Assembly (NCBI RefSeq): GCF_000429165.1
Contig: NZ_AUBI01000004.1
Coordinates: 186,001-250,000, forward strand
DNA length: 64,000 nt
Reading direction: 5' to 3'
From: Acetobacter nitrogenifigens DSM 23921 = NBRC 105050
GTDB taxonomy: Bacteria > Pseudomonadota > Alphaproteobacteria > Acetobacterales > Acetobacteraceae
In this document: in pieces, positions 38,403-46,028 of the stretch
Layout of the letters: each line of letters begins with the position of its first letter
Position numbering within the stretch: the stretch's first letter is position 1
The notes under the pieces: generated by a model
The model's database searches: none
Told to the model about the DNA's origin: nothing
The model's input: only the letters and a program-made list of their open reading frames with translations
Position numbers and translations under genes: made by a program

Positions 38403-38410
38403 TAAAAAAA
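38403..38410. repeat. Left 8-bp target duplication
   Basis: TAAAAAAA immediately outside the left terminal repeat; identical to 44727-44734. Confidence 0.9.
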
Positions 38411-38434
38411 CCCGTTTATCCCCTTGACGCATGT
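38411..38434. repeat. Left terminal inverted repeat, 24 bp
   Basis: Starts CCCGTTTATCCCC and is the exact reverse complement of 44703-44726. The next bases (TGGCC against GCGTG) differ, so the repeat ends there. Confidence 0.95.
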
Positions 38435-38566
38435 TGGCCTCAAAACCTGTAGCAAGCGCGAATTCGAGTTATCACAATGGTTTTCAGGGAATCACACCGA
38501 AGACATTATCAAGACAAATAAAAATATTTATTCTCTATTTATTTATAAACCTAGTTTATATCATTC

Positions 38567-39112
38567 TTATTCATTTGTATTATTCCCTCCAGTGATATTT
38601 TCTTGCTCTTCCACATATTTTTCGTCGATTTCGGCACGGTACCCGATAGACGGACAATCAACGTCTTTGAGCCAATACCCATGCTCCTGAATAAACACGA
38701 TTTTTTCCCGTGAGCGCCACATCATTGTCCCGAGGACTGTTTCAGGCTGTTTTCCATAAATATGGATTTCTCGCTCAGCCAGAGCATCAAAGAGATCCCG
38801 ACGTGAAGCCGGTTTATTGCGTATGCGCAGAATTTCAGAAACAGCTTTTTCCACAGCACTACGGCTAGGATTCTTAGATCGTGCGAGTTTCCGTGACGAG
38901 GAAGTCACCACGGTATCCACTTTTTTTGTATTATGGTGCGTTGTCTCCATAAGATCTGAACGATCCATAACCTTACGCCACATCTCCAGAAGACTTATGA
39001 GTTGTGATCGTTTTCCGTTGGCACTCTCTAGCTTCTGAGCGAGTTCAGCGATCTCCGCCTCGCATGCGGCAAGCCGCGTTTGAATTTGGTTTACCGCTTC
39101 ATTATCTGCCAT
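38567..39112 (-). CDS. Winged-helix (HARE-HTH-like) protein, transposon cargo
   Basis: A 181-residue protein. Residues 3-35 are a coiled coil (IQTRLAACEAEIAELAQKLE), 50-85 a polar linker, and 86-150 a winged-helix-like domain: AVEKAVSEILRIRNKPASRR, then YGKQPETVLGTMMWRSREKI ending in GYWLKD. This layout resembles HARE-HTH domains, which are reported in restriction-modification and other DNA-modification proteins. ATG at 39112 has AGGA five bases upstream. Low GC, like the restriction gene. It may regulate or assist that enzyme; the family assignment is tentative. Confidence 0.65.
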   Translation of the reverse strand: MADNEAVNQIQTRLAACEAEIAELAQKLESANGKRSQLISLLEMWRKVMDRSDLMETTHHNTKKVDTVVTSSSRKLARSKNPSRSAVEKAVSEILRIRNKPASRRDLFDALAEREIHIYGKQPETVLGTMMWRSREKIVFIQEHGYWLKDVDCPSIGYRAEIDEKYVEEQENITGGNNTNE

Positions 39113-39246
39113 TGTATTCCTCGCCCCACTCGACAACACCGACACAACGACATAGCAGATTCTGCGCTCGGAACACAATTTAAGTTGTCGACCACAGCGC
39201 GCTGCGCTATGAATTCAGGGCCATGACGGATTCGCCGCACGGTGTT

Positions 39247-39272
39247 GCCACCCTCCCGGCCAGGAGGGCGGC
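39247..39272 (+). promoter_or_regulatory. GC-rich hairpin before the 29-codon ORF
   Basis: GCC-A-CCCTCC, loop CGGCCA, GGAGGG-C-GGC: nine pairs with one opposed mismatch. It ends 32 bases before the ORF start, so it would lie in the 5' leader. Confidence 0.6.
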
Positions 39273-39304
39273 GACCGTATCACTCTCGTAATTAGGAGAT
39301 TCAG

Positions 39305-39394
39305 ATGAGTAGCAATCATCTGCTGAGGCGGAAGGGACCTGGACAGTATGCGCTGCCATCCCTGAAGCCTCTACTCTTGTTAAATTTGGGGTAG
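39305..39394 (+). CDS. 29-codon ORF with strong ribosome site, transposon cargo
   Basis: The frame reads MSSNHLLRRKGPGQYALPSL then KPLLLLNLG and stops with TAG. AGGAG lies six bases before the ATG. The peptide has a basic first half and a leucine-rich end. It sits between two strong hairpins (39247-39272 and 39417-39447) in the otherwise non-coding space between the winged-helix and restriction genes, and runs opposite to both. It could be a small hydrophobic toxin, a precursor peptide or a leader peptide; I recognise no family and coding status is not proven. Confidence 0.45.
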   Translation: MSSNHLLRRKGPGQYALPSLKPLLLLNLG

Positions 39395-39416
39395 CAATCT
39401 AACCCAAACCTAAAGG

Positions 39417-39447
39417 AGCCATGACACACTTCGAGCGTGTCATGGCT
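39417..39447. terminator. Hairpin between the small ORF and the restriction gene
   Basis: AGCCATGACAC and GTGTCATGGCT form a perfect 11-bp stem with a 9-base loop, followed on the plus strand by TTTA. It could end the small ORF transcript on the plus strand and the restriction-enzyme transcript on the minus strand. Confidence 0.6.
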
Positions 39448-39541
39448 TTACGATAGCTATTTTCTCCTCGCTTGTCTACTCATAGATGGCCAGCGATGCG
39501 AAATGTGCATTCTTAATCTCGTGTTCTTGTTGCCACGCCAG

Positions 39542-42500
39542 TCAACTGTAACGACTAGAGCTATCTAACCCAGTTCGGTAGCCATGAATTCGTGTTTCGG
39601 TGGCGGGCCAACGCGGCGTGATATTTTTCAAAAACGGATCGTTTGTCATATCGGCTTTGATGGAGGCGATGTCGTTATCGTCCAGCCCAAGGGCATCTCC
39701 GACGATAGTGTCGATCTTGTCCACCACAGTATCAATCGCGCTGGCATGATCAGATTCTCTAAACTGCTTCACGAGGGCATGGAACTTCTGAAGCGTCTCC
39801 GCGTCGGGCGGAATTGGCGTCTCAAGTATGCTCGTTCTGTCCACCGTGTTTTTTGAAGTTCCTGCCCGAGCAGAAAGGGCGGCCGCCAAGCCTTTGGCGG
39901 CAGCTTCATCCGGTACTTTGACCCAATCCAGCAGATATTCGGAAATCTGGAGATGCCAGGTTTCCCCTTCAACAACTGGTGTGCAATCGCGAGTAAGCTC
40001 AACGGGTTCATGTGCCTTGTTGAGACTTTCCGACCATTCAACCTTTTTACCCGTCTTTTTCACGGCGTCTTTAACAACGTCGCGAAAAGGTCGAAGCGAC
40101 AGTCGATCAATCGCCGCGAACAAGGACGCCTCGGTCCGGAAGTGGTTTTGGCAGGCATTCACGAGATCGTCTCGCAATGCTTCTAGCGCCGCTGATTTAT
40201 CTATCATGGCATCGTTCCACGGAAGCATCCGCAGGTTCGTGGGATAAATATGACTCCGGTTCATGTCTAGGTACGACATACGGCAGTGCAACGCATAAAA
40301 ATAGCGGTAGATACGTGAGACAAACATCAGGTCAAACGGCACATCTACACAATCCTCGCGTGGTCCGAAAATTGTGGCGGTGTTGGTAAAAACAATCTTC
40401 GACGGGTCAAAGGGAACGGCGTTCGGACAGGTTGCTATCTGTGCCACTGCGTAGCATCGCTTGGGGAGTATTTCTCCCAAGCGGAAAATCCCCATATCAC
40501 TGGCTCTCGCAATATCAATATTTTTATCTAATGGTAAACCCGTCAGCGCGGTAGCGATGATATTTTCGGCCTTATAGACATCTACGCCATCGCCGGATCG
40601 GGCAGAAGCCTTTTTTCCGCGAAAGGCGAGGCCACCTCCTGACATCGAACGTAGCTCCCACATTTTTGCATTGCCTTTGGGTGGATTGAGGCTGACTGTT
40701 CCGCGTTTGTCTCCTTTCGTCTTATGCCAATATTCCTGAAAGGCAGATGACATTTGCGGATTGGTGAGTAGCTTATTGATGATTGTCCGTCGTTCCGGAG
40801 TGACACGGGTGACAATTCGACCATCGGGCGTGAACAAGTCCGCATAATCGAGATGTGAGCCAGGAATGCCCGCGAGATCAAAAGCAGGGCGTTTCGTTCC
40901 ATCACCAAAATCTATGCAGGTCTTGTCTGCCAGTTTGATGACAACCTGGTCCGCCTCCCATCGCTTTCGATTTCGATCCGCGATATTTTGCCATGCTGCA
41001 AGACTTTCCGGCCTAGCCTTTGCCAGACGCTCATCAATCCATGGCTGCAAGCGGGCTGCGCGGACGCGATAACGCTCATGTTCCTCAACTGGCAGAGGGG
41101 TGGTTTTATTTAACCACTTCGGATCAAGCGGCAGCCTGGGTGGACGCGCTTCGGCGATAAAGACGATAGGCAGAACTTTGGCATCAAATAAATCGCGCCA
41201 AATTACTTCCAGATCAACAATTTCCTTGATCGTCCATCGTCCGTCCGGACCAAACAGGCGACGCAATTCAGCATTTTCCTGCGTGCCACAAAGGGCAAGA
41301 GGGACAACGAAACCAAGCCGCCCCGCTCCTTCGCCCCACGGGTTGGAACGTCGGCACCAGCCATCAAGCGCGCGATAGATAAATAAGGCATAGAGATTGG
41401 CTTTGGCGGAAATGCCTTTCCAGCCATCATAACCACTTTCAAAATATTCGGTCGTTACCTCGTCTAGCGCGCCGGAGCGTTCAGGACGAACGTAGGGTGG
41501 ATTACCTGCGATTCCACCGTAATTGCGGTCATCAAGCTCGACGAAGCGCCCATGCTGGGCCAACTCTACTCCTGGGCGAATGATGCTGTTTGCCTTGTCA
41601 CTGATCGCAATATCCGGAAACTCGGGAGCGGCGAGCAACTCATCCTTAAAGACAAGGACATGCCAGAGAATCTGAATTTGTGCGAGGACCGCTGAGAACG
41701 TATTAAGGTCGTTGCCTGCCAGTCGGTCGAGAGCGGCAGTAACTTCATCAAAGGTGGCTAACCCTCGATCGGCATCTTCTCCGACCACTTGCTGGTAGCG
41801 CTCAATCAAAAAGGTACCGCTCCCGCAAGCGGGGTCCATGAAACGATCTTCTGGCTTTAATTCCAGCCGATCGACGATATAGCGGGCGATCGAGGGCGGG
41901 GTGTAATATTCGCCAAATTTTTTACGTTGTTCCCGGTTGAGAAAACGATCGTAAACGCCTGTAAGAATATCGCCCTTGACTGTGGTGAAGTCATATCGAG
42001 ATAGCTGGTACATGGCCCATTCGATCGCGTTGGACAGATTGCCATCATTGGTGGCAAAGACCCAATCCAACTCAGTTTCGTCAAATGCCGCCGCGTAGAG
42101 CGCCTGGGCCTTTTCATACGCCATTCTCAGCAGGCGCGTGTATCCGAAGGAGAACTTTTCTCGCAGCTTCTGAAATGCTTCCACGCCGCCATTGCAAATG
42201 TAGCGGTTCTTGCCAAAGAATTCATGATCCTCGAAAAAGCGTATCAGCAGGATACGGGCAAGGATAAGGTTTGCGGTTTCGGTCGCAAACATCTCCAGAA
42301 TCTTCTTTTCTTCCTTGGCATCATTTTCTTTGGCGTTCACCCGTGCCCTGAATTCAGGTAAGCCGTCGAGCGCCAGGCGGGCGATACTGCCAGCCTTTTT
42401 TAACTCGCGATTAAGGCGCACGACATCACCGCCATAAGTCATCGCCGCTTCATACGATCCTGGGTGGGCCGTGGCCGTCAGTGTGTATGGGTCGAAAACA

Positions 42501-43258
42501 GCGTCTCGATATTTTTCCTTGAACTTGTTCCAAAATTCGGAAATCTTGGTTGCTTTATCAAGAACGGATTGCAGCGTTCCGAGAGTAGACTCCTGCAAAT
42601 AACTCGTCGTGTTGCGTAGAGTCTCATAGAAGTTTCTACGAGCGATGAGTGCCTGGTTGTTTTGTCTTTTGGTTCCTTCGTCCGGCATCGTGAGCTTCTC
42701 AGTCCCAATCAGTGCGACGTCTCCTCCTCGAAACGCTTCCAATCTCTTGGGGACGCCTGCGATCTCATACGACAAACGCGAAAAGATGTTTCGGAAACTG
42801 ATTTCGTCAGACGATTGATCAAGGATAAAGGTAATATCTTTGGAAGCATCATGGGTTGAATCCATCACTGGCCGGGCAATAATGACCGTTGGATCAACCA
42901 TGACAAACCATGCGGTATCGGGACGGATGTATTTTGCTTTTTGAGCGAAAATTGTCTCCCGTTTGCTAAGGGTGGAAAATGCGTTGTGCTCGTCCTTGGC
43001 CTCAACCACCAACCAGTCAATCTCAATCGATTTGCCATTGCGATCGGTGATTCCCGATGGTGCGCGGCAGGTGACGTCCGGTCTCCCATCTTCTCCCGCG
43101 ATGTCTATGTGAACCGAACTGCGTGGATACCCAAGAATATCACAAAAAATATCACGAAGAGGGCCATACATAGCCGCTTCCTGACCACGTTTTACATCTC
43201 GGATTGTCTGAATAGCTTCAGCAAATATTCCGATGATCGAATTGCCGCTCTTTTTCAT
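39542..43258 (-). CDS. Type IIG restriction-modification enzyme, transposon cargo
   Basis: A 1,238-residue single-chain enzyme joining nuclease, adenine methyltransferase and target recognition. A PD-(D/E)xK nuclease motif lies at the N-terminus: Asp61 in GRPDVTCR, and Glu86 and Lys88 in LVVEAKDE. The methyltransferase core follows: GEYYTPPSIARYIVDRL (about 448), motif I MDPACGSGTFLIERY (about 475) and motif IV GNPPYVRPE (about 588). The last 500 residues are the probable specificity domain. Being self-contained, it needs no separate methylase. I use the ATG at 43258; a TTG two codons upstream is possible. BREX PglX proteins look similar, but this one has its own nuclease and no other BREX gene is nearby. 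Codon use is lower in GC than the chromosome. Confidence 0.9.
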   Translation of the reverse strand: MKKSGNSIIGIFAEAIQTIRDVKRGQEAAMYGPLRDIFCDILGYPRSSVHIDIAGEDGRPDVTCRAPSGITDRNGKSIEIDWLVVEAKDEHNAFSTLSKRETIFAQKAKYIRPDTAWFVMVDPTVIIARPVMDSTHDASKDITFILDQSSDEISFRNIFSRLSYEIAGVPKRLEAFRGGDVALIGTEKLTMPDEGTKRQNNQALIARRNFYETLRNTTSYLQESTLGTLQSVLDKATKISEFWNKFKEKYRDAVFDPYTLTATAHPGSYEAAMTYGGDVVRLNRELKKAGSIARLALDGLPEFRARVNAKENDAKEEKKILEMFATETANLILARILLIRFFEDHEFFGKNRYICNGGVEAFQKLREKFSFGYTRLLRMAYEKAQALYAAAFDETELDWVFATNDGNLSNAIEWAMYQLSRYDFTTVKGDILTGVYDRFLNREQRKKFGEYYTPPSIARYIVDRLELKPEDRFMDPACGSGTFLIERYQQVVGEDADRGLATFDEVTAALDRLAGNDLNTFSAVLAQIQILWHVLVFKDELLAAPEFPDIAISDKANSIIRPGVELAQHGRFVELDDRNYGGIAGNPPYVRPERSGALDEVTTEYFESGYDGWKGISAKANLYALFIYRALDGWCRRSNPWGEGAGRLGFVVPLALCGTQENAELRRLFGPDGRWTIKEIVDLEVIWRDLFDAKVLPIVFIAEARPPRLPLDPKWLNKTTPLPVEEHERYRVRAARLQPWIDERLAKARPESLAAWQNIADRNRKRWEADQVVIKLADKTCIDFGDGTKRPAFDLAGIPGSHLDYADLFTPDGRIVTRVTPERRTIINKLLTNPQMSSAFQEYWHKTKGDKRGTVSLNPPKGNAKMWELRSMSGGGLAFRGKKASARSGDGVDVYKAENIIATALTGLPLDKNIDIARASDMGIFRLGEILPKRCYAVAQIATCPNAVPFDPSKIVFTNTATIFGPREDCVDVPFDLMFVSRIYRYFYALHCRMSYLDMNRSHIYPTNLRMLPWNDAMIDKSAALEALRDDLVNACQNHFRTEASLFAAIDRLSLRPFRDVVKDAVKKTGKKVEWSESLNKAHEPVELTRDCTPVVEGETWHLQISEYLLDWVKVPDEAAAKGLAAALSARAGTSKNTVDRTSILETPIPPDAETLQKFHALVKQFRESDHASAIDTVVDKIDTIVGDALGLDDNDIASIKADMTNDPFLKNITPRWPATETRIHGYRTGLDSSSRYS

Positions 43259-43641
43259 CGTCAAATATCACGTCCCGAATAGAATTGGCTCTCTAATAAC
43301 CAGACCGTTACACCTGCACCAGATATCGGCACCCTGTGGCGTTCCGGAATATCGCATCCGATCAAGTGATTCGCTCCTGATTGATAAAAGCGATTCTATC
43401 GGAGGCCACGCGTCGCGTAACCGGTGTCTCGATTACTGCGTGAGAAACAACTTTCACTGGCAGCTTTTTGAGGTGTGGTTTGCGGTTTGGATCTGCCTGA
43501 ATCCGCCCGCTTCTGGTCGGCCGAATGCAAAGGATACACTGGTTTGTTCCGTCAACCTGTCCCAATCCTTGTTGTTCTTTTTGGGCAGGACGCGCATGGT
43601 GTGTGTCAAGGATGGTCCGAGGCATTGGAGAACAGAAAGAC
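43259..43641. other. Gap inside the transposon, no gene seen
   Basis: A 383-base space between the restriction gene start and the small basic ORF. Frames on both strands are short and unlike proteins I know. It must hold the promoter of the restriction gene, but no box is convincing. Confidence 0.4.
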
Positions 43642-43842
43642 GTGCGACGAGTGAGACGATTAACCTTAGCTGAAGCACTGCGGAACGGCGAAGTCGATGC
43701 TTTTGCTGCCCAGGCCGAGGCGGAAGGCATCGGCCCAGCAAATCTGGAGATCTTTGAAAAACTGCTGGGATGCATTACAGCGCCCCGACAAGAAGATCGA
43801 ACATGCCGTTTACACGGGCGCGATAACTCACACGAAAAGTAA
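43642..43842 (+). CDS. Small ORF convergent with the transposase
   Basis: A 66-codon frame starting with GTG at 43642 (another GTG at 43651), with GGAG about 11 bases upstream. It contains VRRVRRLTLAEALRNGEVDA and AQAEAEGIGPANLEIFEKLL, then a polar tail ending NSHEK. It overlaps the end of the transposase gene by 68 bases in the opposite direction. From memory, similar small proteins (ending in a Ser/Gly-rich tail, with an AEARGIGP-like block) lie beside other transposases in alphaproteobacteria, so it may be an accessory of the element. Function unknown. Confidence 0.5.
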   Translation: MRRVRRLTLAEALRNGEVDAFAAQAEAEGIGPANLEIFEKLLGCITAPRQEDRTCRLHGRDNSHEK

Positions 43843-44677
43843 ATTCTGCCAGATAGCGCTGCATATGCTTTGAACTTATCTGGATATGAGTTGACCGCAC
43901 TGACGCCTTGAACAGCCTCCAAAAACCCTCGACAGTATTTACATGGAAGGTCGCCTTCGCTCTGTAATCATAGTAAGCATATTCTTTCGCGGCGTGCTTG
44001 ACGACACCATGCTGATAACCATCGTTCGTTAGTAAGCCATACGACACAAGTTCATCTGTCGAGACAGTTGAACCCGGTTTGACATTTTTCAGGACAACGT
44101 CTCTCAGCGTATCTTTTGTGACATCCGGGATAACAACTGCCTTCATGTTGCCGCCACGTTCGGCGAGCCCCATGACAATGGTCTTGCCCGGTGCGCCACG
44201 CCCCCGCTTTCCACCGGATCGCCGTCCGCCAACATAGGCTTCGTCCAGTTCTACATGTCCAGCAAGCAGGGCGTCGAAATTTTGAGCTTTTGCCATGAGA
44301 TCACGAATTTGCTGTCCCATGCGGTAGGCGGTTTTATAAGTAACGCCCAGTTGGCGCTGTAGCTCCTTGCCGCTAACGCCGTGACGTGTCGTGCAAAACA
44401 GGTACATCGCATAAAACCATGATACGAGAGGCGTCCGCGTGTCATGTAGAATCGTGTTTGCTGTAGGATTCACATGATGGCCGCATGATGAACAAACGTA
44501 AGTGCGGCGTTCTTTGAGTTTGTGGTGTGTTGTCTCTTTGTGACATACATTACATTCAAATCGCGTGCCACCGAAGCGAACCCGCATGATATGAGCGAGG
44601 CAGGCGTCATCATCGGGAAAGCGCCGAAAGAATTCCCGAACTGAAAATTCAGGCGATGCGGACGGACTCTTGCTCAT
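43775..44677 (-). CDS. IS1595-family (ISXO2-like) transposase
   Basis: A 300-residue DDE-type transposase. The N-terminal zinc ribbon has Cys42, Cys45, Cys62 and Cys65 (ECNVCH...VCSSCG). The catalytic core shows Asp145 in VELDEAYVGGRR, Asp208 in VSTDELVSYG and the HVNTVEGFWRLFKAS block (245-259) with the third acidic or amide position. These are the ISXO2-like DDE features. It starts 26 bases inside the right terminal repeat and reads inward. No frameshift or stop is present, so it looks active. Confidence 0.95.
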   Translation of the reverse strand: MSKSPSASPEFSVREFFRRFPDDDACLAHIMRVRFGGTRFECNVCHKETTHHKLKERRTYVCSSCGHHVNPTANTILHDTRTPLVSWFYAMYLFCTTRHGVSGKELQRQLGVTYKTAYRMGQQIRDLMAKAQNFDALLAGHVELDEAYVGGRRSGGKRGRGAPGKTIVMGLAERGGNMKAVVIPDVTKDTLRDVVLKNVKPGSTVSTDELVSYGLLTNDGYQHGVVKHAAKEYAYYDYRAKATFHVNTVEGFWRLFKASVRSTHIQISSKHMQRYLAEFTFRVSYRARVNGMFDLLVGAL

Positions 44678-44702
44678 GCTTTATTGAGTAACACACTCAC
44701 GC

Positions 44703-44726
44703 ACATGCGTCAAGGGGATAAACGGG
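44703..44726. repeat. Right terminal inverted repeat, 24 bp
   Basis: Exact reverse complement of 38411-38434. Confidence 0.95.
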
Positions 44727-44734
44727 TAAAAAAA
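44727..44734. repeat. Right 8-bp target duplication
   Basis: TAAAAAAA, identical to 38403-38410. Confidence 0.9.
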
Positions 44735-44834: not shown

Positions 44835-46028
44835 TCAATCATTATTCACATTATTACCGAATACATAATTATTGCCGATACGCTTTCGACGATCAATCAT
44901 CGCCTCAAATGCTTGCCTTATACGTGCTATAGCCTCCGATTTATAAGGAAAAATTTCCGGAGAGTCGCGATCGTGGACGATCATTCCTGTTTCTACTTCA
45001 AAAATCACGACCTGTCCCGCGGAGGACACACCGAAATCCAGCCCGAAATAATCCAGCCCCACGCGCGTTGCAATCTCACGTAATGCATCGATGATCGAAA
45101 CAGAAAAATACGATGCCATATCGCCCATAAACCGCGCCTCTTCCGCACGACGTTCCGGGTAATGCTCCATGTGAGCATTGTAGTACCAGACAGCCCAATC
45201 GTTATGCACAGCTAGATGAACAGGAAATGGCTCACCGTCGATAAACACGACTCTAAATTTTCTGTATAATCCGTCCTCATTCTTGAAGTCGAAAAAATCC
45301 GTTACGAAGAACGTGTCCGATATGCTTGCATGGCGACAATAAGCATTCAGCTCCGAGCGGCTATCCAACTTGCGCAAATTCAACCCTGCATGGGACGATA
45401 TCGGCCGGATAAGCACCGGATATTTTACAATATTATCAAACGGTTCCTTCACAGTACAACAGGCAGGAACCACAACATCTCTCAAACCAGACAAAAGCCG
45501 CGAAACTTCGGAACGGGACGCCGCTTCTATTTGCTTCGGCCGGTTGATTGCCGGCAAATTGCTGCGACGCCCAAAATCTTCCGCTTGTGACAAATACTGT
45601 TGGGAGCGGATGTCTTCAGCTATTCCAACCAGAAGACAGTCGGGCGCTGGCTCCAAAGAAGTCAAAGCCTTGACCAAAGAGGCGTTCGCCGACAAATCGC
45701 CCGTCATCCATAAAGTATGGACCGTCGTCGACTGATCCAGGAGCATACCTATCGGCGCGTTAGCCTGAAAATTCCCTGGCGCAGCAAGAACCAGCAGACA
45801 TCGGAGTGGGTCCGCCCTACCTTCGCGAGACCTCTCAAACGGGTCTATGGCTATGGCCATATTCAAATGAGCCAGAGCCGCATTTTCGTCCCCGCACACC
45901 AGACACGCTTCCCACAGCGCATAATGCAAAGTCGCCTGACGCGCTGGAGGAGCGCCCTCTTTCAGACATTCCTCTAGATGGGTCCGCGCCACCCGTGGGT
46001 CGTTCGAAAATTCGGAAAAATCGAGCAT
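44835..46028 (-). CDS. ATP-grasp protein with N-terminal TPR-like region
   Basis: A 397-residue protein. The first 80 or so residues are TPR-like helices (ATLHYALWEACLVCGDENAA, LAHLNMAIAIDP). Residues about 180-370 form an ATP-grasp fold: PVLIRPISSHAGLNLRKL, KFRVVFIDGEPFPVHLAV, and the metal-binding GLDYFGLDFGV...VVIFEVETGMIVHD. ATP-grasp enzymes join a carboxylate to an amine or thiol through an acyl phosphate. It lies downstream of the 920-residue glycosyltransferase on the same strand, so may build or attach part of the same product. The substrate is unknown. AT-rich flanks border the transposon. Confidence 0.78.
   Translation of the reverse strand: MLDFSEFSNDPRVARTHLEECLKEGAPPARQATLHYALWEACLVCGDENAALAHLNMAIAIDPFERSREGRADPLRCLLVLAAPGNFQANAPIGMLLDQSTTVHTLWMTGDLSANASLVKALTSLEPAPDCLLVGIAEDIRSQQYLSQAEDFGRRSNLPAINRPKQIEAASRSEVSRLLSGLRDVVVPACCTVKEPFDNIVKYPVLIRPISSHAGLNLRKLDSRSELNAYCRHASISDTFFVTDFFDFKNEDGLYRKFRVVFIDGEPFPVHLAVHNDWAVWYYNAHMEHYPERRAEEARFMGDMASYFSVSIIDALREIATRVGLDYFGLDFGVSSAGQVVIFEVETGMIVHDRDSPEIFPYKSEAIARIRQAFEAMIDRRKRIGNNYVFGNNVNND

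What the first reader, a model, noticed from the sequence alone, without database searches (positions are those of the whole stretch)
38411..44726. Complete 6.3-kb IS1595-family transposon carrying a single-gene restriction-modification system
Seen directly: 24-bp perfect terminal inverted repeats, an identical 8-bp flanking repeat (TAAAAAAA), an intact IS1595/ISXO2-like transposase, and between them a type IIG enzyme with nuclease and methyltransferase motifs plus small genes. Known: IS1595 elements make 8-bp duplications and can carry passenger genes. Inference: one DDE transposase moves a whole defence system that needs no separate methylase, so it is self-protecting on arrival in a new host. 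The clean ends indicate a recent move. It sits within a glycan region and spares the coding sequences on both sides.
Basis: partly seen in the sequence, partly recalled or inferred. Interest (0 to 1): 0.88.

Follow-up and report, generated by a model that had tools for sequence, protein, structure and literature searches.

The report
Cargo-swapping transposon carrying a restriction enzyme
A complete 6.3-kb jumping DNA element carrying a single-protein defence enzyme is really there, and its relatives use the same mover and the same ends to carry quite different genes, so it looks like a reusable carrier whose cargo is exchanged.

Summary
Window 38411-44726 (6316 bp) is a complete IS1595-family transposon: perfect 24-bp terminal inverted repeats (TIRs), an identical 8-bp duplication, an intact transposase, a 1238-aa type IIG-like enzyme and a coiled-coil/winged-helix gene. 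A sister species has the uninterrupted site (9.5 kb collinear, 89.4% identical).

I compared it with 85 related elements (86 accepted of 103 transposase loci, 12 of them by hand).
It is found in 84 of 86 elements and is under purifying selection; in 50 of 73 its start lies within 30 bp of the last cargo gene's stop.
(2) Elements share about 1 kb (left TIR, transposase, small gene) and the right TIR; 12 of 16 compared pairs share nothing between. Cargo class shows no signal on the transposase tree, while a core trait does.
(3) Close relatives carry Cas2/VapD-like, Schlafen AlbA_2, barstar and defence-candidate genes instead. The window element is the largest of the 86.

Nuclease activity and self-protection on arrival are untested, and a general enrichment of defence cargo was not shown. 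IS1595 elements with passenger genes are known; the shared small gene and free cargo exchange I did not find described.

The parts
38403..38410 (.). target-site duplication, left copy TAAAAAAA
38411..38434 (+). terminal inverted repeat at the cargo (far) end, 24 bp; the 'right' end in the transposase's orientation
   Evidence: only this pair in the host genome
38567..39112 (-). 181-aa protein P0003: long N-terminal helix (residues 2-65) and C-terminal winged helix (84-148); homologues in other elements of the clade
   Evidence: phmmer L011 2.3e-18, L031 2.9e-5; jackhmmer; AlphaFold2 pLDDT about 85-95 in both parts; weak winged-helix matches in the PDB, best E 0.1
39417..39447 (.). near-perfect hairpin (14-nt arms, 13 of 14, 3-nt loop) between the enzyme gene and P0003; terminator-like, function inferred
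   Evidence: I12
39542..43258 (-). 1238-aa type IIG-like restriction-modification enzyme P0001: N-terminal PD-(D/E)XK-like motif (P60 D61 ... E86 A87 K88), adenine methylase motifs DPACGSGTF (475-483) and NPPY (586-589), long C-terminal part of the size of a target-recognition domain
   Evidence: motif positions invariant in a full-length homologue
43642..43842 (+). 66-aa conserved small gene (GTG start), opposite strand, overlapping the transposase 3' end by 68 bp; present in 84 of 86 related elements
43775..44677 (-). IS1595-family transposase, 300 aa
44703..44726 (-). terminal inverted repeat at the transposase end, 24 bp; the 'left' end in the transposase's orientation
44727..44734 (.). 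target-site duplication, right copy TAAAAAAA

Best explanation
The stretch 38411-44726 is a unit transposon of an IS1595-family subgroup. Its transposase acts on the two 24-bp ends and duplicates 8 bp of an AT-rich target, moving everything in between as cargo. Shown: ends, duplication, intact transposase, empty site in a sister species, and 85 related elements with the same plan. The subgroup is built of a fixed core of about 1 kb (transposase-side TIR, transposase, and a small convergent gene of about 50-66 aa), a cargo slot, and a bare 24-bp TIR at the far end. Shown by comparison: the slot's content is replaced between these fixed boundaries. Here the slot holds a one-polypeptide type IIG-like R-M enzyme and a coiled-coil/winged-helix protein. 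Inferred: the enzyme methylates the host's sites and cuts unmodified incoming DNA, so host and element share protection; P0003 binds DNA as a dimer and regulates; the small gene, usually the last gene of a cargo operon running into the transposase's 3' end, restrains transposition, in line with the single copies seen in the genomes.
For: TIR/duplication score 36.0 against a control maximum of 28.5. Empty site, 9517 aligned columns at 89.4%. 86 elements accepted of 103 loci: 74 automatic, 12 by hand, 17 dropped; 70 of 86 have an 8/8 duplication, AT 0.74 against 0.49 in the flanks. Small gene in 80 of 86 as an annotated-length ORF and 84 of 86 by six-frame search, always opposite the transposase; dN/dS median 0.26, all 130 usable pairs of 351 below 1. 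Its start lies within 30 bp of a cargo stop in 50 of 73 elements, 18 of them exactly at -4 or -1; random points 9.2% and 0.35%. In 12 of 16 chosen pairs only the first 1.0-1.06 kb and the last ~24 bp match. Seven-member cargo class: 7 changes on the tree, shuffles mean 6.55; P0003-like class: 8, mean 8.88; control trait (left-TIR variant): 2, mean 8.87, 0 of 300 shuffles as low. Enzyme motifs conserved in a 35%-identical full-length homologue.
Against: No second element with this enzyme was found: P0001 is in 1 of 385 class genomes and 1 of 398 phylum genomes, its own in both, so its mobility rests on this one copy plus the empty site. No Pfam nuclease model matched and the PDB matches cover only the methylase. 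In the window the enzyme runs in the transposase's direction, away from the small gene, so the coupled layout does not apply here; in the 33 nearest elements only 13 are coupled. A general excess of defence genes in the cargo was not shown: 4 of 20 sampled cargo proteins against 1 of 10 flanking controls. Nothing shows that the small gene controls transposition; its fold (three helices, pLDDT 75) matched nothing useful in the PDB.
Confidence: 0.82

Rival explanations
1. An ordinary transporter-IS: one IS1595 element that happened to trap an R-M gene once, with nothing special about the group. The varied cargo of relatives reflects old, slow divergence and loss rather than exchange.
For: IS1595 elements with passenger genes are established (PMC11891212, PMC5704250, passages). 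Members of one cargo class are often only about 30% identical, so some differences may be old.
Against: Near-sister transposases carry unrelated cargo (L012 and L016: core DNA 91.6% identical over 1030 bp, nothing else shared but 26 bp at the far end); cargo class has no signal on a tree that carries strong signal for a core trait; the break points recur.
Confidence: 0.3
2. The enzyme is not a restriction enzyme but a solitary methylase, or a BREX/PglX-like or MADS-like component, with another function.
For: Family models match only the methylase domain and include mad2 (5e-15) and PglX (9.4e-10) next to type IIG (2.8e-18).
Against: An N-terminal PD...EAK motif is conserved with a distant full-length homologue (P60, D61, E86, K88 invariant), and no BREX or MADS partner lies within the element.
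Confidence: 0.15
3. P0003 and the enzyme form one functional unit: P0003 times expression of the enzyme on arrival, like a controller protein of R-M systems.
For: Same strand, 429 bp apart; predicted DNA-binding fold.
Against: P0003 relatives occur in elements without an R-M enzyme (L011, L031, L009, L026) or with a Cas2/VapD-like gene (L010, L018, L025, L029, L157); a hairpin separates the two genes.
Confidence: 0.25
4. The ends are a chance or assembly artefact.
For: The duplication is a low-complexity A run.
Against: 24 perfect bases, score far above controls, the same ends in relatives, interior of a 377-kb contig, empty site.
Confidence: 0.01

Closest known systems
IS1595 family and its 'transporter IS' (tIS) members with passenger genes (Siguier et al. 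2009, cited; the paper itself was not held)
   Same: Transposase domains, TIRs of about 24-25 bp, 8-bp AT-rich duplications, passenger genes between the ends. ISNha5 is cited as an IS1595 member carrying a transcription regulator, and IS220 (IS1380 family) a methyltransferase (PMC11891212, passage).
   Different: A whole one-polypeptide R-M enzyme as cargo; a conserved convergent small gene; cargo exchanged between fixed boundaries. The small gene was not found in 6 of 7 other IS1595-family loci, including IS1595 proper, ISKpn3 and ISPma1.
tISCpe8 and MTnSag1 (IS1595-type elements with lincomycin resistance; PMC5704250, passages)
   Same: IS1595 transposase, 25-bp TIRs, 8-bp repeats, passenger gene.
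   Different: Those are mobilised by conjugative elements; neither an oriT nor mobilisation was tested here. Their cargo is drug resistance.
Tn7-like transposons as carriers of defence systems (PMC8649781, abstract and outline)
   Same: A transposition core with highly varied cargo that includes anti-phage systems.
   Different: Different and multi-protein machinery and far larger elements (size recalled); here a single 300-aa transposase, mostly 1.6-3.5 kb elements, and one to three cargo genes.
Type IIG restriction-modification enzymes (Eco57I/MmeI-like; PADLOC REase_MTase_IIG)
   Same: Methylase motifs, nuclease-like motif upstream, long C-terminal part, all in one polypeptide.
   Different: Weak match to all models held (63 bits); recognition site and activity unknown; closest full-length relative found is only 35% identical (Nitrosophilus labii plasmid).

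Membership tests
IS1595 family transposon | DDE_Tnp_IS1595 domain and N-terminal Zn-ribbon | tested here: met
   PF12762 2.4e-38, PF12760 2.3e-9; NF033547 194 bits
IS1595 family transposon | terminal inverted repeats and 8-bp target duplication | tested here: met
   family features as stated in PMC8101967 (passages)
IS1595 family transposon | moves as a unit (empty site) | tested here: met
IS1595 family transposon | transposition activity of this copy | not testable with these tools
   needs a mating-out assay
IS1595 subgroup (ISNwi1 or ISSod11, from recalled TIR consensus) | assignment to a named ISfinder subgroup | not tested
   ISfinder is not available here; the subgroup names come from PMC8101967, the TIR consensus from recall
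Type IIG restriction-modification enzyme | adenine methylase domain with motifs I and IV | tested here: met
Type IIG restriction-modification enzyme | nuclease domain in the same polypeptide | tested here: inconclusive
   conserved PD...EAK motif, but no nuclease family model matched
Type IIG restriction-modification enzyme | methylation and cleavage activity, self-protection | not testable with these tools
   needs long-read methylation calls and biochemistry
Tn7-like transposon | TnsA/B/C machinery | tested here: not met
   none of the 8 proteins scanned (3 in the element plus 3 minor ORFs and 2 neighbours) matches such a family
BREX / MADS system | match to the PglX or MAD2 curated model above cut-off | tested here: not met
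   47.3 bits against 720, and 31.6 against 400

The most novel reading that the evidence does not exclude
This IS1595 subgroup is a cassette-exchange transposon. A fixed transposase + small-gene core repeatedly acquires new, often defence- or toxin-like, cargo between a constant junction at the small gene and a bare 24-bp far end. The small gene, translated as the last gene of the cargo operon and antisense to the transposase's 3' end, ties expression of the cargo to silencing of the transposase, so the element stays at one copy per genome while its cargo is useful. The window element is an enlarged version that took in a complete restriction-modification enzyme. It would be a small, DDE-transposase counterpart of an integron cassette array.
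Probability: 0.3. Interest if true: 0.85.

Novelty: new variant of a known kind. Interest (0 to 1): 0.6.

Why it matters
If right, defence genes do not need large islands or conjugative elements to travel: a single 300-aa transposase with 24-bp ends can carry a complete R-M enzyme. The family-wide pattern raises two questions that can be tested directly: how cargo is replaced so cleanly up to a bare 24-bp end, and what a small protein does that is shared by transposons whose transposases are only about 45% identical. The core-plus-TIR signature also gives a simple way to look for unknown small defence systems, since cargo ends are marked exactly.

Tried and rejected
Defence enrichment: ten cargo proteins picked for interest gave 7 of 10 PADLOC hits at E <= 0.01, but that is biased. 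A random sample of 30 was drawn and 20 were run: 1 of 10 in the far clade and 3 of 10 in the close clade (for L011 I replaced the sampled antisense ORF by the P0003-like ORF). The third ten were not run. Ten of 20 drawn flanking controls were run: 1 of 10. So 4 of 20 against 1 of 10; not claimed as enrichment.

Other copies in the host family: 3 of 397 genomes matched the 20-base end with up to 2 mismatches, the host included; 11 genomes matched the reversed control, so the two others are at chance level. One of them, G295, has no transposase of this kind.

Tracing the enzyme: nothing in viral contigs, no match of 80% coverage in phages (0 of 22 records with a match), no DNA match of the element in plasmids, one full-length relative in plasmids.

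dN/dS control: the frames shifted on the same strand gave 1.30 and 2.16, antisense frames 1.15, 0.34 and 2.63. The 0.34 frame shares wobble positions with the small gene, and its low value is expected from that; only 130 of 351 pairs were usable in the gene's own frame.

Single copy: 20 of 25 genomes of close relatives have the exact 15-base end motif, none more than once per strand. Collapsed repeats in draft assemblies could hide copies, and G1168 and G920 hold two related transposases each.

Labels: the names VapD-like, ART-like, DUF1828-like pair, NYN-like and 'two-TM membrane protein' are my reading of sequences, not tool results, unless a hit is quoted. The PIN match of L015 (E 0.036), the DUF5343 match of L020 and the Cas2 match of L157 are below Pfam's cut-offs. 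The 16 pairs and the cargo classes were chosen by me; the seven-member and Cas2-like classes were checked afterwards by BLAST.

Structure search with VIA-align was unavailable.
Full report
Observation. The reported anatomy is real. The two 24-bp ends match base for base, the 8-bp TAAAAAAA flanks are identical, and the coordinates are exact. The transposase is an intact IS1595-type protein. In the host genome (51 contigs, 4.27 Mb; the window is inside a 377-kb contig) the ends occur once, as this pair. The element is poorer in G+C (0.50) than the window (0.60), and in its genus a transposase of this kind (E <= 1e-25) is found in 4 of 49 genomes: the host, and three others at only 35% identity. 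The host organism was not identified.

Empty site. Both flanks were searched in 49 genomes of the genus. One genome, G799, matches both (86% and 89%) on one contig, 87 bp apart. The fetched stretch (L114, 9501 bp) aligns to the window with the element removed over 9517 columns at 89.4%, with no insert. The intergenic junction has diverged, so the target reads as a similar A-rich run, not the same eight letters. This is the main evidence that the element moved as a unit.

Relatives. A genome-wide scan gave 79 loci with related transposases, the best 83-86% identical and in Sphingomonadales; viral contigs added 9, Sphingomonadaceae genomes 13 and a plasmid 1. With the window that is 103 loci. 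A joint score for ends and duplication passed the control maximum in 75; one of these (L148) was dropped because its transposase is truncated and the ends fell inside it; 12 more were accepted by hand because the ends were clear but the duplication weak or unassigned; 16 were dropped. Of the 86 elements, sizes run from 1142 to 6316 bp with a median of 2240; the window element is the largest, the next 3483 bp. Only one (L037) has under 300 bp beyond the transposase. Duplications are AT-rich (0.74 against 0.49 in the flanks; 70 elements with 7-8 matches).

A second core gene. A search seeded with one cargo protein that was by chance read through into the core uncovered a short ORF opposite the transposase's 3' end. 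As an ORF it is in 80 of 86 elements, 33 of 33 with a transposase at least 60% identical to the window's and 47 of 53 of the rest; by six-frame search with the resulting profile it is in 84 of 86, always on the same strand (the profile was built from most of these rows). Outside the part that overlaps the transposase its dN/dS is 0.26. It is missing from 6 of 7 other IS1595-type plasmid loci that I looked at, including IS1595 proper, ISKpn3 and ISPma1, and present in a Sulfitobacter one, so it marks a subgroup. In 50 of 73 elements its start lies within 30 bp of the stop of a gene that runs toward it, 18 of them with the 4-base or 1-base overlaps typical of coupled translation; random points in the cargo give 9.2% and 0.35%. 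The coupling is the rule in the far clade (37 of 40) and less so in the close clade (13 of 33). In the window the R-M gene points the other way, so the small gene stands alone. The predicted fold is three helices, without a useful match.

Cargo exchange. DNA comparison of 16 chosen pairs shows, in 12, a match over the first 1.0-1.06 kb and, beyond that, only the terminal 23-27 bp (seen by BLAST in 8 and by direct comparison inward from the end in all 12). The other four pairs share cargo DNA and belong to the same cargo class. The left boundary falls near the start codon of the small gene. L012 and L016 are 91.6% identical in the core but carry a two-gene cargo and a different pair, respectively. 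On a transposase tree of 33 elements plus 3 outgroup rows, the seven elements with the two-gene cargo need 7 changes (shuffles: mean 6.55), the ten with P0003-like genes 8 (mean 8.88, 31% of shuffles as low), while a variant in the left TIR needs 2 (mean 8.87, none of 300 as low). The far TIR of an element is nearer to its own left TIR than to the far TIRs of elements with the same cargo in 19 of 20 cases, so the far end belongs to the transposase, not to the cargo. How a new cargo comes to lie exactly against a bare 24-bp end is not explained. A 512-bp element without transposase, with the same ends and a perfect 8-bp duplication (L170), shows that ends can move without their own transposase and could supply far ends.

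What the cargo is. In the close clade: Cas2-like (VapD-like by my reading) genes in five elements (L010, L018, L025, L029, L157; Pfam Cas2 2.2e-6 for L018); a two-gene pair in seven (PADLOC candidate PDC-M24B, 1.2e-5, 0.0011 and 0.00012 in the three tested); Schlafen AlbA_2 with a RecG-type C-terminal ATPase fold (L145; 7.3e-9, 4.9e-13); barstar (L021; 1.5e-9); DUF433 with MerR (L014); DUF6941 (L007); PDC-M34A (L013; 4.3e-14); PD-T4-9-like (L016; 4.8e-6). Farther out: PDC-S42 (L058; 1.8e-50), PDC-S45 (L062; 1.1e-14), and a 780-aa type IIG-like enzyme in a gammaproteobacterial element with weak ends (L069; 3.1e-34; 5 of 8 duplication, no small gene). Many far-clade cargo genes look like small membrane proteins and match nothing. 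The random sample does not show an excess of defence genes over flanking genes (4 of 20 against 1 of 10), so 'defence carrier' is a description of this and some other members, not a rule for the group.

The window's own cargo. P0001 has methylase motifs I and IV and, upstream, a PD...EAK motif; both are invariant in a 35%-identical full-length protein on a Nitrosophilus plasmid. It is rare: only the host among 385 class and 398 phylum genomes. P0003 is predicted as a 64-residue helix followed by a winged helix at high confidence, and its relatives occur in other elements of this clade with other partners or alone, so it is better seen as a recurring passenger than as part of the R-M system.

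Literature. Passenger-carrying IS1595 elements are known (passages). The founding paper and the tISCpe8 paper are not held (for the latter). Searches for IS1595 together with restriction-modification, anti-phage cargo, cargo genes, or accessory small proteins listed nothing that, by titles and abstracts, describes an R-M-carrying IS1595 transposon, the small gene or cargo exchange; that is an absence in an open-access library only.

Verdict. The finding is correct and, looked at alone, a new variant of a known kind. Its larger interest is the family it opens: a compact transposon core with a second, unrecognised gene and freely exchanged cargo.

Noticed in passing
L170:4192-4703 (viral contig IMGVR_UViG_3300008255_000064): 512-bp transposase-less element with the window's exact left end, a 19/24 far end and a perfect 8-bp duplication AAGGAGAT: a MITE-like relative.
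   Followed up: partly
L037:9926-11067: 1142-bp element with transposase and small gene but no cargo, ends 19/25 and duplication 8/8: a candidate bare core.
   Followed up: partly
L069:9921-13366: Second IS1595-like element (Gammaproteobacteria MAG) holding a type IIG-like enzyme of 780 aa (PADLOC 3.1e-34); its duplication is weak and the small gene is absent.
   Followed up: partly
L011, L016, L026, L076, L087, just after the transposase: An ORF of 130-156 aa on the transposase strand is similar in these five elements (clustered for four of them; L087 by eye) and overlaps the small gene's N-terminal part in antisense; nature unknown.
   Followed up: no
far-clade elements, e.g. L035, L036, L041, L049, L051, L068, L080: The single cargo gene often looks like a 190-250 aa protein with N-terminal membrane segments, directly upstream of the small gene; by eye only, no family match in the four scanned (L041, L042, L052, L060).
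   Followed up: no
window 44835-46028 (-): Right-hand neighbour gene, 397 aa: only a weak match to an F420 glutamate ligase model (29.6 bits, cut-off 300); an ATP-grasp-like gene of unknown role beside glycosyltransferase genes.
   Followed up: no
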